Of a stretch of 36,953 nucleotides of DNA, positions 22,550-26,715 are shown piece by piece. This DNA comes from a virus: IMG/VR virus record IMGVR_UViG_3300044612_000093, positions 1 to 36,953 of that record; one strand, 5' to 3'. A model generated the notes under the pieces. The model saw nothing but the letters and a program-made list of their open reading frames with translations. It did no database searches and was not told where the DNA came from. Position 1 is the stretch's first letter; every line of letters begins with the position of its first letter. A program made the translations under genes and the position numbers.

Positions 22550-23180
22550 TCGCAAGGCATTTAAGAAGTTTATCCCTAACTCAAAGTACTCGGATCAATG
22601 GTACGACGCACTATTCAGTTCTCAGACTGAGCTAGGTGGGAAGTCTCTCCTAGAAGAATACGAGATTACGACTCCTAACCGTATAGCGTCCTTTTTAGCC
22701 CAATGCCACCATGAATCAGGTGGATTCGTCTGGCTAACAGAGAACCTGAACTATTCTGCTCAAGGTCTCCTCAAGGTATTCCCTAAGTATTTCGCTACAG
22801 ACTCACAGGCTAAGGCTTATGCTAAACAGCCGGATAAGATCGCTAACTACGTCTATGCGAATCGTATGGGTAACGGTGATGAGGCTAGCCAAGAGGGGAG
22901 CGTCTACAAGGGCAGAGGATTAATCCAGCTGACCGGCAAGGATAACTATTTTTGGTTCGCTGCTAGCCTAGAGATGACTCCGCAAGAAGCTGCTGAATAT
23001 ATGCAGACATTCGAAGGAGCAGCCCAATCTGCTTGCTGGTTTTGGTCGGAAAATAAGCTAAATAGATTCGCTGACGCTGGTGATCTCAGAGGCATGACTA
23101 AGGTCATTAACGGTGGTTACAAAGGTATGGAAGATAGAGAGGCTCAGTATGCGCGCGCTTTGGCTGTTGTTCATTCTTAG
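22542..23180 (+). CDS. Endolysin, GH19 chitinase/lysozyme type
   Basis: The enzyme cleaves the glycan backbone of peptidoglycan at the end of infection. The GH19 fold is shown by AQCHHESGGFVWLTENLNY (about residues 53-71, with catalytic Glu58 and Glu67), VFPKYF, then the conserved YKGRGLIQLTGKDNY (about 122-136), and a C-terminal TKVINGG helix. At 212 residues it is a single catalytic domain without a signal peptide, so it needs a holin to reach the wall. It starts at GTG 22542, overlapping the previous gene, and the lipoprotein gene starts inside its 3' end. Confidence 0.92.
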   Translation: MIDRKAFKKFIPNSKYSDQWYDALFSSQTELGGKSLLEEYEITTPNRIASFLAQCHHESGGFVWLTENLNYSAQGLLKVFPKYFATDSQAKAYAKQPDKIANYVYANRMGNGDEASQEGSVYKGRGLIQLTGKDNYFWFAASLEMTPQEAAEYMQTFEGAAQSACWFWSENKLNRFADAGDLRGMTKVINGGYKGMEDREAQYARALAVVHS

Positions 23181-23331
23181 TCTCGTAGGTTGTGAGGATA
23201 GGTTCCGTTATCCATGTCAAGATAACAAGAACTGGAATAAACCTGAGTGTCAAAGACCTACCTGTGCCATTACGGGTACTTGTCCTGACCAGTTAGTACC
23301 TGCTGCCGACTTTAAGCCGGAGGAAAAATGA
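23149..23331 (+). CDS. Cysteine-containing lipoprotein, 60 residues
   Basis: I choose ATG 23149 because it gives a clean lipoprotein signal: Arg at residue 2, a hydrophobic core, and the lipobox LVGC with Cys15 as the lipidated residue. The ATG at 23113 would put a charged 12-residue extension in front. The mature part has four more cysteines (YPCQD, PEC, RPTCA, GTCP), suggesting two disulfides in the periplasm. I recall the RYPCQ...CPDQ pattern from other phages, including cyanophages, without a known role. It overlaps the endolysin gene by 32 bases and the next gene as ATGA. Confidence 0.75.
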   Translation: MRALWLLFILSLVGCEDRFRYPCQDNKNWNKPECQRPTCAITGTCPDQLVPAADFKPEEK

Positions 23332-23759: not shown

Positions 23760-23938
23760 TTGCATTACGCATGGTTGGAACTGTGTTTCTTAGTCTATTT
23801 CTTGTGTTTAACATTCACGCAGGAGAGACTAAAAAAGTCTGCAATGCCCAAAAAGACAAGAAGGGTAAGGAAGTTCAGGTCTGTCGTGAGGTCAAGGTAC
23901 ACAAGAAACTTGATGGCACGAAAGTACCGCCGAAATGA
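23756..23938 (+). CDS. Secreted basic peptide, 60 residues
   Basis: The first ~22 residues form a signal peptide (MIALRM, a hydrophobic core, and NIHA before the likely cleavage site). The mature ~38 residues are strongly basic, with about 12 lysines and two cysteines 14 residues apart (KVCNAQ, QVCREV) that could form one disulfide. No lipobox is present, so it should be free in the periplasm. It is embedded in the lysis cluster with ATGA overlaps on both sides. A charged periplasmic peptide could act on the wall or outer membrane, but that is speculative. Confidence 0.65.
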   Translation: MIALRMVGTVFLSLFLVFNIHAGETKKVCNAQKDKKGKEVQVCREVKVHKKLDGTKVPPK

Positions 23939-24396
23939 ATCCGTATCTCATCCTCGGCGTTGTATTCGCAGTCGGTGTAGCCGGAGCAGGTGGCCTATAC
24001 AAGGGTCACAGGCTAGGCAAGGCTGAGGTTCAGCAACAATGGGATAAGGAGAAAGCCGAGCAATACGCTGCTTATGCTAAGGCTCAGGAAGAAGCCCGTA
24101 AGAAGGAGCAAGAGTTACAGGCTAATGCGGATCAACTAAGGAGGGAGAAGGATGAAGAAATCAGGGATATTGCTGCTAAGTCTGCTGCCCTTGCTAGTAA
24201 GTTGCGCGACAGGAAAGACCGCCCCACCCAAACAGGTTCCGTGTCCAGTACCGCCAGCGTTGGATCAAGCGGCTGTAGCGGAAAAGAGCTTTACCGAGAG
24301 GATGGGGAATTTCTTATCCGGATCGCTAGAGAAGCCGACGAACTCCGTACAGCCCTCAAGCAATGCTACACCCAGTACGAAACCCTAAGAAAGTGA
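23935..24396 (+). CDS. Rz: i-spanin (Rz-like)
   Basis: Spanins link and disrupt the inner and outer membranes in the final step of lysis of Gram-negative cells. This 153-residue protein has one N-terminal membrane anchor (about residues 4-24, LILGVVFAVGVAGAGGLY) followed by a long periplasmic coiled coil (EVQQQWDKEKAEQYAAYAKAQEEARKKEQ) and a C-terminal region with ELYREDGEFLIRIAREADELRTALKQC, typical of Rz. The o-spanin is encoded inside it in the +1 frame. It overlaps the preceding gene as ATGA, and its end overlaps the convergent gene at 24385 by 12 bases. Confidence 0.88.
   Translation: MNPYLILGVVFAVGVAGAGGLYKGHRLGKAEVQQQWDKEKAEQYAAYAKAQEEARKKEQELQANADQLRREKDEEIRDIAAKSAALASKLRDRKDRPTQTGSVSSTASVGSSGCSGKELYREDGEFLIRIAREADELRTALKQCYTQYETLRK
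24152..24388 (+). CDS. Rz1: o-spanin (Rz1-like lipoprotein) embedded in Rz
   Basis: This 78-residue frame lies wholly inside the Rz gene in another frame. It has a lipoprotein signal (KK, then ILLLSLLPLLVSC with Cys18 as the lipidated residue), and a mature part rich in proline (KTAPPKQVPCPVPPALD and PTNSVQPSSNATPS), as known for outer-membrane Rz1 lipoproteins. GGGAGAAGG lies directly before the ATG as ribosome site. The embedded layout is the same as in lambda. Together with Rz it indicates a Gram-negative host. Confidence 0.88.
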   Translation: MKKSGILLLSLLPLLVSCATGKTAPPKQVPCPVPPALDQAAVAEKSFTERMGNFLSGSLEKPTNSVQPSSNATPSTKP

Positions 24397-24784: not shown

Positions 24785-24972
24785 AGTCTACGTTGGCAGG
24801 TAAAGGCTTGGATGTCTACGCGAAATGCCCCTGCAAACTTACAATCAGAGGCTATCCGAGATTCTGTTTGAATCCCACCGACGTACCAGCCGATAACGCA
24901 TAACAAGATGGCAACGATAGACTTAGCCCACCAGTCAAGCACCATATCAACTGCTTTAGATAGATCATTCAT
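24781..24972 (-). CDS. Single-span membrane protein, 63 residues
   Basis: A short amphipathic N terminus (NDLSKAVDMVLDWWAK) is followed by one hydrophobic segment (about residues 17-33, SIVAILLCVIGWYVGGI) and a periplasmic or cytoplasmic tail with two cysteines (SDCKFAGAF, FTCQRR) that could form a disulfide. It has no lipobox. Its place in the early operon, not the lysis cluster, suggests a role in takeover or exclusion rather than lysis, but this is only positional. Confidence 0.6.
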   Translation of the reverse strand: MNDLSKAVDMVLDWWAKSIVAILLCVIGWYVGGIQTESRIASDCKFAGAFRVDIQAFTCQRRL

Positions 24973-25270
24973 CTTTAACGAATACCCCTTCTTTGTTTAG
25001 ATAGCCTTTACGATCCTTAATCTGCTCGTAGGCTGACTGGAAGCATTGTTTCAGATCGACATCTTCAATAGCAGCAACCATAGTGAGGCATACAAGAACG
25101 TCCCCAAGTCCATCAATAATTGATTCACGGTCTCGCTTGGTAATCGCATCTGCTAACTCTCCCATCTCAGAAAAAGCCTTCAATAGCTGCGTCTTAGCGT
25201 CAGAGTTCTGAATAATCCCTCTAACCTCACCCCAACGAACTACTACTAATTCTGTAGCCTCGTAGCTCAT
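24965..25270 (-). CDS. MazG-like nucleotide pyrophosphohydrolase
   Basis: MazG-type enzymes hydrolyse nucleoside triphosphates or ppGpp-related compounds, using magnesium held by acidic residues. In this 101-residue protein the metal-binding pattern is EMGELADAI near residues 35-43 followed by IDGLGDVLVCL near 51-61 (ExxE then ExxD-like, with D as the first residue of the second helix). Phage copies are thought to manage nucleotide pools or starvation signals. The gene starts in an ATGA overlap with the XRE gene. Confidence 0.75.
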   Translation of the reverse strand: MSYEATELVVVRWGEVRGIIQNSDAKTQLLKAFSEMGELADAITKRDRESIIDGLGDVLVCLTMVAAIEDVDLKQCFQSAYEQIKDRKGYLNKEGVFVKDE

Positions 25271-25458
25271 AGGAAGCTCTCAATCTCAACGATAGGCATA
25301 TTGAAAGCCTTATGAATGGCAATCTTAGTTTCAGCCGATACCCCATTGTGACCGTTACGAATCTTGCTAATCGTAGGCATGGATACGCCTATCTTTAGGG
25401 CTAGTTGACGGTCGTTCTTGATCTTGTGCGTTTCTTTCAAATAGTCCAACAGTTTCAT
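25267..25458 (-). CDS. XRE/Cro-type DNA-binding regulator, 63 residues
   Basis: I start at ATG 25458 because AGGAGAG lies just upstream; the longer frame from 25509 adds 17 basic residues without a good ribosome site. The helix-turn-helix covers about residues 16-37 (RQLALKIGVSMPTISKIRNG), with an invariant-looking Ser-xx-Thr-Ile-Ser-Lys recognition helix and a final dimer segment (IAIHKAFNMPIVEIESFL). With no integrase here it is more likely to time early genes than to keep lysogeny. Two inverted repeats upstream (25478-25494, 25569-25580) are candidate binding sites. Confidence 0.85.
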   Translation of the reverse strand: MKLLDYLKETHKIKNDRQLALKIGVSMPTISKIRNGHNGVSAETKIAIHKAFNMPIVEIESFL

Positions 25459-25477
25459 TTTCTCTCCTGAGTTAGTA

Positions 25478-25494
25478 GACCGCTTACGGCGGTC
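25478..25494. promoter_or_regulatory. Inverted repeat in the XRE leader
   Basis: GACCGC (25478-25483) and GCGGTC (25489-25494) form a 6-bp stem with a TTACG loop, 20 bases upstream of the XRE start. It could be an operator for autoregulation or an RNA hairpin in the XRE leader. The longer XRE frame would read through it, which is one more reason to prefer ATG 25458. Confidence 0.4.
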
Positions 25495-25568
25495 AGTCGG
25501 CATACTCACATAGAAGGGGAGACAAACGTCCTAAGGAGCTATGCGTATGCTGCGTAGGTTACGCGCCA

Positions 25569-25663: not shown

Positions 25664-25810
25664 TCAATAGCAACTCGTATTACACGAGGCTCCATAACAG
25701 CAAGTTGTACAAGTTACGCATCGACCAGCATCACAGTATGTGTGATAGGTACAAGTAGCGTAAACGAATGGTGCTGTAACGGCTAACCAAAGTGCGAATA
25801 GGTATTTCAT
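25664..25810 (-). CDS. Secreted 8-cysteine miniprotein, 48 residues
   Basis: A frame from ATG 25810 to TGA at 25664, with GGAGGAG as ribosome site, encodes 48 residues. The first 18 form a signal peptide (MKYLFALWLAVTAPFVYA). The mature ~30 residues contain eight cysteines in the order C-x5-C-x4-C-x2-C-x2-CC-x4-C-x3-C, rich in Thr, Tyr and Gly. Eight cysteines after a good signal peptide and ribosome site strongly suggest a disulfide-rich periplasmic or secreted peptide. I do not recognise a family. It lies in the early operon between the SSB-like and XRE genes, so an early role at the cell envelope is inferred. Confidence 0.72.
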   Translation of the reverse strand: MKYLFALWLAVTAPFVYATCTYHTYCDAGRCVTCTTCCYGASCNTSCY

Positions 25811-25819
25811 AGCTCCTCC

Positions 25820-26059
25820 TCAAAATGGCGCGTCACTTAGATCATCGTCCTGAAACTCAACCTTCTTTGCTGGCTTCTTAGTCTCTTTCTCTTTGACTGC
25901 TAGCGAAAAAAACTTGCCGTTCTTGCCTTCTTTAAGCCAGCCAGAGAGCCAGTAATCCTTGCCATCGATGTTGATTGTGCCGCTATAGTCTGGGTGCTTG
26001 TCAGACTGTTTGTTAGTGTTGCGACCCAACATACCGCGATTAGTGTTGTCGTATTCCAT
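25820..26059 (-). CDS. SSB-like protein, 79 residues
   Basis: The central part (SGTINIDGKDYWLSGWLKEGKNGKFFSLAVKEKE) reads as an OB-like beta barrel, and the C terminus is acidic and ends in DDDLSDAPF, close to the acidic Pro-Phe tail with which single-stranded DNA-binding proteins recruit partners. At 79 residues it is shorter than usual SSBs. It is encoded next to the ERF annealing protein, a common pairing. I therefore call it SSB-like, acting on replication or recombination intermediates; binding is not shown by sequence alone. Confidence 0.65.
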   Translation of the reverse strand: MEYDNTNRGMLGRNTNKQSDKHPDYSGTINIDGKDYWLSGWLKEGKNGKFFSLAVKEKETKKPAKKVEFQDDDLSDAPF

Positions 26060-26061
26060 GT

Positions 26062-26715
26062 TTATCCTTTAGTAAATTTCTTGATTGCACTACGTTGCTT
26101 GCTATCCAATAGACTCCAGAGTGCAGTCTTCCAATCTGCATCTAGTCCTAAAGAATTGATGTACTCCACAGCGTCCGCTACCTGATCCTTGTGAATCATT
26201 AGGATGATGTCTGCTGCGTAGCTACGAATCTCGTCTTGAGATTCTGCGTCCAGATCGTCAAACACGGACTTAGTAATCGGCTTGGCTGACTTAGGTTCGT
26301 CTGAGCCTGTAGTAGCGTCTAGTGCGTCATGCTCACAGATTGCCAGAGCCATTACCAGCAGATACCGAGTAATGTAGGTAATCGATGCACCTAGATTCTG
26401 GACATCGTGACAGCCTTTCAACTGAGCAGAAGCCATAGGACAGGTGAACTTAGTGCAGCCACCGTTGACCGTATCAATGACTCGCATAGTCGCTAGTTCG
26501 CTGGTGAACTCTAGCGTATGGCACAGTCCTAGTTCAGCGAATATCGAGTTGACTGTAGGCAGGAAGTCGGTCAGTTCAAAGTACCGATAGCCAGCAAACT
26601 TGTTATGCCCTGACTTCTTGAGTTCTACGTTCTGGAGCTTAACTCTGGCTTCCTGTAGCTTTTGGTAGACGAGCCATTGCTGCTGTTCTTCTTGTTCCTG
26701 TTGACGGTTATCCAT
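26062..26715 (-). CDS. ERF-family single-strand annealing protein
   Basis: ERF proteins pair complementary single strands during phage recombination and circularisation. The 217-residue protein has the family features: a helical start (VYQKLQEARVKLQNV), KSGHNKFAGYRYFELTDFLP then IFAELGL near residues 37-65, and VQNLGASITYITRYLLVMALAI near 105-127, with a less conserved acidic C-terminal part. No exonuclease partner of the lambda Exo type is present, but VRR-NUC and the SSB-like protein are. The ribosome site is GGATAA-like and weak, so coupling to the upstream 56-residue gene is likely. Confidence 0.88.
   Translation of the reverse strand: MDNRQQEQEEQQQWLVYQKLQEARVKLQNVELKKSGHNKFAGYRYFELTDFLPTVNSIFAELGLCHTLEFTSELATMRVIDTVNGGCTKFTCPMASAQLKGCHDVQNLGASITYITRYLLVMALAICEHDALDATTGSDEPKSAKPITKSVFDDLDAESQDEIRSYAADIILMIHKDQVADAVEYINSLGLDADWKTALWSLLDSKQRSAIKKFTKG

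What the first reader, a model, noticed from the sequence alone, without database searches (positions are those of the whole stretch)
25664..25810. Unlisted secreted peptide with eight cysteines in ~30 mature residues
A 48-codon frame with an optimal GGAGGAG site, a clean signal peptide ending VYA, and a mature part with eight cysteines (C-x5-C-x4-C-x2-C-x2-CC-x4-C-x3-C) lies in the early operon between the SSB-like and XRE genes. I know no described phage family with this pattern. An early periplasmic disulfide-rich peptide could alter the envelope, block superinfection or act outside the cell.
Basis: partly seen in the sequence, partly recalled or inferred. Interest (0 to 1): 0.75.

Follow-up and report, generated by a model that had tools for sequence, protein, structure and literature searches.

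The report
Widespread secreted eight-cysteine phage mini-protein
A tiny gene in this lake-type phage makes a 30-residue exported peptide held flat by four predicted disulfide bridges; at least several hundred uncultured phages carry relatives of it, no catalogue searched here describes it, and it probably protects or remodels the envelope of the infected cell.

Summary
It encodes 48 residues: an 18-residue signal peptide ending in VYA and a 30-residue mature part with exactly the stated eight-cysteine spacing. It is a real, strongly conserved family. Of 133 distinct mature forms, 89 have six cysteines, 44 have eight and none has seven. pN/pS is about 0.15. Pfam, PHROGs, NCBIfam, PADLOC and the PDB know nothing like it. 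Among 50,697 phage records only two Manatee Spring metagenomic phages carry it. AlphaFold2 gives a confident three-stranded β-meander (pLDDT 92.6). Of 121 strand registers, only the predicted one puts all eight cysteines opposite each other (C2–C19, C8–C13, C16–C29, C20–C25). The gene usually sits in recombination/replication operons, often directly after SSB, in phages with four different major-capsid families and no detected tyrosine integrase. Best explanation: an early, non-lipidated periplasmic binding peptide acting on the host envelope, most likely superinfection exclusion or envelope protection. Architecture is well supported; function is inferred.

The parts
25664..25810 (-). CDS of the 48-aa eight-cysteine exported peptide (stop at 25664-25666)
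   Evidence: 528 tblastn-confirmed relatives; pN/pS about 0.15 over 69 distinct CDS
25757..25810 (-). Signal peptide MKYLFALWLAVTAPFVYA (Lys2, hydrophobic core, V-Y-A signal peptidase I site)
   Evidence: -3/-1 A-x-A type ending conserved as VWA/VYA/AWA/TWA/AYA and similar; signal-peptide scan
25667..25756 (-). Mature 30-aa peptide: three-stranded beta-meander with predicted cross-strand disulfides C2-C19, C8-C13, C16-C29, C20-C25 (mature numbering)
   Evidence: AlphaFold2 pLDDT 92.6, strands 2-9, 12-21, 24-29; the only register of 121 that pairs all eight cysteines; covariation
25813..25821 (-). Shine-Dalgarno GAGGAGGAG overlapping the SSB stop codon (translational coupling likely)
   Evidence: sequence; SD-like motif upstream in 146 of 155 distinct family members
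25820..26059 (-). SSB-like gene immediately upstream
   Evidence: phrog_7364 E 2.5e-18; one SSB-like cluster lies directly upstream in 75 of 226 evaluable loci, median gap 10 nt
26062..26715 (-). ERF ssDNA-annealing protein of the same operon
   Evidence: PF04404 E 7.3e-14
25267..25509 (-). HTH/XRE (Cro-like) gene downstream; true start probably the ATG at 25458
   Evidence: HTH_3 E 2.2e-7; homologues start MKLLDYL
24965..25270 (-). MazG-like pyrophosphohydrolase, downstream in the same direction
   Evidence: PF03819 E 1.3e-9; same order ERF-SSB-peptide-MazG in the pond alphaproteobacterial MAG contig L083

Best explanation
The gene encodes a small accessory phage effector. It is translated with SSB from the recombination/replication operon (the early timing is inferred from position), exported by Sec, cut after VYA and oxidised in the periplasm into a rigid flat three-stranded beta-sheet locked by cross-strand disulfides. 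It has no evident catalytic residues and no lipid anchor, so it most likely acts by binding. The invariant Cys-Thr-Cys ladder on strands 2 and 3 (C16/T18/C20 facing C29/T27/C25) is the likely structural or binding signature. The most likely role is envelope protection of the infected cell: superinfection exclusion or blocking of an envelope step, by binding a conserved host envelope component from the periplasmic side. Shown by computation: gene reality, constraint, export signal, fold prediction, operon position, spread over unrelated phages. Inferred: timing, disulfide pairing, target and role.
For: Large conserved family with signal peptide and cysteines kept. AlphaFold2 predicts the same strands for eight-Cys and six-Cys members (pLDDT 92.6 and 92.4). 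Only register (21,45) of 121 pairs all eight cysteines, and it is the predicted one. Recombination/replication operon: upstream gene on the same strand in 204 of 226 loci, most often SSB-like. At least four unrelated major-capsid families among carriers, which points to a host target rather than a virion part. No tyrosine integrase in 38 long phage records, as for largely virulent phages. The gene is accessory: the related phage MW202481 has ERF, exonuclease and SSB but no such peptide. Precedents for small exported phage proteins doing exclusion from the periplasm: T4 Spackle (PMC7677548), T5 Llp (PMC9586334), Rtp45 with a disulfide and beta-hairpin (PMC12685063).
Against: No functional or expression data. 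Known exclusion proteins are often receptor-specific, whereas this core is nearly invariant across phages with different virions. It lacks the lipid anchor of Llp, Cor and Rtp45. Localisation rests on sequence features only. AlphaFold2 is unproven for such a small peptide, and its prediction of Llp was inaccurate (PMC9586334). Host identity is unknown.
Confidence: 0.45

Rival explanations
1. Host take-over or anti-defence effector: it binds a conserved periplasmic host protein (protease, oxidoreductase, secretion or stress sensor) to favour replication rather than to exclude other phages.
For: Near-invariant core across phages with four capsid families suggests a conserved host target; sits with replication genes.
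Against: No target evidence; no PADLOC match; accessory rather than universal.
Confidence: 0.25
2. Lysis-timing control: the peptide is a periplasmic inhibitor (antiholin-like, as T4 RI, or an inhibitor of a muralytic enzyme) that delays lysis while the phage replicates.
For: Periplasmic, early-operon, binding-only protein; Spackle itself inhibits a lysozyme and its mutants show early collapse of lysis inhibition (PMC7677548). The window phage has its own lysozyme-like and spanin-like genes.
Against: Encoded far from the lysis cassette, on the other strand. Carriers have unrelated virion modules, and their lysis genes were not compared.
Confidence: 0.15
3. Extracellular peptide: released signal or inhibitor acting on neighbouring cells or grazers.
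For: Compact, predicted disulfide-stabilised, exported.
Against: Hosts are probably Gram-negative, so Sec export alone leaves it in the periplasm; no receptor or regulator gene partner is constant next to it.
Confidence: 0.1
4. Not a functional protein: chance ORF.
For: Public annotation of the Manatee Spring phage calls an antisense ORF here instead.
Against: Hundreds of homologues in one frame, pN/pS about 0.15, invariant cysteines using both codons, SD motif in 146 of 155.
Confidence: 0.01

Closest known systems
T4 Spackle (gp61.3), periplasmic superinfection-exclusion protein (PMC7677548)
   Same: Small early phage protein with cleaved export signal, disulfide-containing, periplasmic, not lipidated.
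   Different: Spackle is a 75-aa alpha-helical bundle with one disulfide and binds the tail lysozyme; this is a 30-aa all-beta peptide with three or four predicted disulfides, shared by phages with unrelated virions; no sequence relation.
Superinfection-exclusion lipoproteins T5 Llp, Cor and Rtp45 (PMC9586334, PMC12685063)
   Same: Small exported phage proteins with disulfides; Rtp45 has a disulfide and a long beta-hairpin.
   Different: Those are lipid-anchored; the window peptide has no lipobox (residue +1 is Thr).
Cystine-knot and other cysteine-rich mini-proteins
   Same: Six-cysteine order C-C-CC-C-C; very short and cysteine-rich.
   Different: Predicted pairing is 1-3, 2-6, 4-5 in the six-cysteine form (a ladder), not 1-4, 2-5, 3-6; no sequence match in the PDB and no convincing fold match.

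Membership tests
Spackle-type superinfection-exclusion protein | Cleavable Sec signal, not lipidated | tested here: met
   Signal peptide and A-x-A type site conserved family-wide; sequence-based only, periplasmic location not measured
Spackle-type superinfection-exclusion protein | Alpha-helical bundle | tested here: not met
   AlphaFold2 all-beta, pLDDT 92.6
Spackle-type superinfection-exclusion protein | Binds and inhibits the incoming phage's tail lysozyme | not testable with these tools
   needs a binding assay
Superinfection-exclusion lipoprotein (Llp/Cor/Rtp45) | Lipobox with Cys at +1 | tested here: not met
   VYA|TC in the window; most members [VAT][WY]A|[AST]C; the few WA|C members lack a Leu-Ala-Gly type lipobox
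Superinfection-exclusion lipoprotein (Llp/Cor/Rtp45) | Blocks receptor binding of the phage | not testable with these tools
   needs an infection assay
Inhibitor cystine knot | 1-4, 2-5, 3-6 disulfide connectivity | tested here: inconclusive
   Predicted cross-strand register gives 1-3, 2-6, 4-5 for the six-cysteine form, but disulfides were not measured
Any Pfam, PHROGs, NCBIfam or PADLOC family | Profile match | tested here: not met
   No match for the window peptide; a six-Cys member gave one stray PHROGs match, E 0.25; 111 members scanned against Pfam gave only stray E > 0.03 matches in 1-3 members

The most novel reading that the evidence does not exclude
A hitherto undescribed, very widespread family of exported phage mini-proteins with its own disulfide-ladder beta-meander, which binds one conserved component of the bacterial envelope and works across phages with unrelated virions: a general, shared exclusion or take-over device rather than a receptor-specific one.
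Probability: 0.3. Interest if true: 0.8.

Novelty: new variant of a known kind. Interest (0 to 1): 0.62.

Why it matters
A gene carried by at least several hundred environmental phages is missing from the curated family libraries, probably because it is under 50 codons; the public record of the nearest annotated phage calls an antisense ORF over it. Its sequence makes sharp, cheap predictions (signal cleavage, four named disulfides, periplasmic location, exclusion phenotype) that can be tested with a synthetic gene in a laboratory strain. A target conserved enough to be shared by phages with unrelated virions would be of interest for phage-host biology and for envelope biology.

Tried and rejected
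Chance ORF or annotation artefact: rejected by conservation. Lipoprotein: no lipobox. Host gene picked up by phages: 1 of 385 genomes of the same class and 1 of 398 of the phylum, both the same MAG contig, which carries phage genes. Plasmid gene: none. Known fold: Foldseek on the PDB gave no match below E 2 and VIA-align nothing above Z 3.3; only generic three-stranded sheets, which does not show that the fold is new. Repeated independent gain of the C8/C13 pair: the tree supports only one or two changes, so '0 of 133 with seven cysteines' is consistent with a disulfide pair but is not many independent events. Covariation has low statistical power (effective number about 20) and, for hairpin 1, register 19 scores at least as high as 21 within the six-cysteine clade. 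Host assignment: closest cultured phage by terminase is Methylophilales phage Venkman (64%), but that is only a lead. The Fremin et al. 2022 catalogue of small phage genes is not held, so presence there could not be checked. Literature searches found no description.

Full report
OBSERVATION. The ORF at 25664-25810 exists, on the minus strand: MKYLFALWLAVTAPFVYA|TCTYHTYCDAGRCVTCTTCCYGASCNTSCY. The Shine-Dalgarno GAGGAGGAG overlaps the stop codon of the SSB-like gene, so the peptide is probably translated coupled to SSB. The minus-strand genes read 109-aa ORF, 56-aa ORF, ERF, SSB, peptide, HTH, MazG, small membrane ORF, zinc-ribbon-like ORF; ERF, SSB, HTH and MazG are confirmed by profiles. The five-cysteine DNA pattern occurs once in the window and never in 100 shuffles.

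REAL FAMILY. A scan of IMG/VR with this peptide gave 528 tblastn-confirmed stretches. Together the fetched loci give 259 members (some contigs fetched twice) with 133 distinct mature sequences and 155 distinct full-length ones. Of the 133, 89 have six cysteines and 44 have eight; none has seven. The core is x-C-x13-C-x-T-C-C-x4-C-x-T-x-C; C2, C16, T18, C19, C20, C25, T27 and C29 (mature numbering) are invariant in 111 aligned members; the motif used to collect them already required most of these, so the free evidence is the first cysteine, the signal peptide and the earlier unguided scan. Signal peptides end almost always in VWA, VYA, AWA, TWA, AYA or similar, and 146 of 155 members have an SD-like motif. 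pN/pS is 0.15 in 69 distinct eight-cysteine CDS and 0.32 in 80 six-cysteine CDS (0.24 in their mature part), with synonymous sites near saturation.

NOT IN CATALOGUES. No Pfam, PHROGs, NCBIfam, PADLOC or PDB sequence match. Among 50,697 phage records only two Manatee Spring metagenomic phages carry it; in the one examined the gene is not annotated and an antisense ORF is called instead. No plasmid carries it. In bacterial genomes one scan found only a pond alphaproteobacterial MAG contig, in the order ERF, SSB, peptide, MazG; sampling 385 genomes of that class and 398 of the phylum gave only that one. It is a phage gene, not a host gene.

ARCHITECTURE. AlphaFold2 with 111 relatives gives three antiparallel strands, residues 2-9, 12-21 and 24-29, pLDDT 92.6; a six-cysteine member gives the same strands at pLDDT 92.4. 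With two-residue turns at 10-11 and 22-23 the registers are i+j=21 and i+j=45. Among 121 register pairs this is the only one that sets all eight cysteines opposite one another: C2-C19, C8-C13, C16-C29, C20-C25. By ordinary hairpin geometry (own knowledge) all four fall at non-hydrogen-bonded positions, where cross-strand disulfides are favoured. The pair missing from six-cysteine members, C8/C13, is one predicted bridge. Mutual information over 120 ungapped members peaks at registers 21 and 45. Limits: the six/eight change happened only once or twice on the tree, power is low, and within the six-cysteine clade register 19 scores at least as high as 21 for the first hairpin. The tool gave no coordinates, so sulfur distances were not measured, and AlphaFold2 saw the same alignment. 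Fold searches found only generic sheets.

CONTEXT. In 226 evaluable loci the upstream gene is on the same strand in 204; one SSB-like cluster is directly upstream in 75 with a median gap of 10 nt, and two further SSB-like clusters add 13. The window's own SSB-like gene was named by profile; the chosen representative of the large cluster has no PHROGs match, so its SSB label rests on position and its SSB-like tail ending in PF. Profile-named neighbours of other carriers include primosomal/replication-initiation proteins, RecE-like exonuclease, RusA-like resolvases and Cro-like regulators. Carrier phages examined have four different major-capsid families: phrog_1328 (window), phrog_9953, phrog_10 and phrog_267; only 12 of 39 records carry a capsid protein of the window's type, some records being fragments. 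None of 38 long virus records has a tyrosine integrase; the only hits were on other contigs of the MAG. A related phage, MW202481, keeps ERF, exonuclease and SSB but lacks the peptide, so the gene is accessory. Closest cultured relative by terminase is Methylophilales phage Venkman, 64%.

MECHANISM. An accessory gene of replication operons that encodes an exported, rigid, binding-only peptide, shared by phages with unrelated virions, most simply acts on the envelope of the infected cell. Superinfection exclusion has clear precedents among small exported phage proteins: T4 Spackle (PMC7677548), T5 Llp (PMC9586334) and Rtp45 (PMC12685063). The near-invariant core argues for a conserved target, which fits receptor-specific exclusion less well; host take-over (0.25) and lysis timing (0.15) remain open. 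It works like these proteins at most by analogy; it is not a member of the Spackle or Llp families: the fold and the lipid anchor, respectively, are not met.

VERDICT. Observation confirmed; family new to the libraries searched, very widespread, structure well predicted; function unproven.

Noticed in passing
window 23149-23331 (+): 60-aa lipoprotein-like ORF with four cysteines after the putative lipid Cys (MRALWLLFILSLVG|CEDRFRYPCQ...), with a similar ORF in Manatee Spring phage MW202462 (5749-5952, -), in the late/lysis region; another candidate envelope protein.
   Followed up: partly
window 23935-24396 and 24152-24388 (+): Embedded ORF pair resembling inner and outer spanins: the outer one a lipoprotein-like frame inside the inner one.
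   Followed up: no
L001:2856-3002, L019:1406-1552 and further contigs (L291-L304): A second, tandem eight-cysteine copy about 84 nt upstream with identical spacing but few Thr and an atypical N-terminus, identical in protein sequence in all 14 contigs.
   Followed up: partly
L082:755-898: Public record MW202462 leaves the peptide unannotated and calls an antisense ORF (817-1059) over it.
   Followed up: yes
L196:8767-8937 and L216 (- strand): Outlying six-cysteine members with a longer N-terminus and a KQP tail; L216 lies in a phage with a phrog_10 capsid protein.
   Followed up: partly
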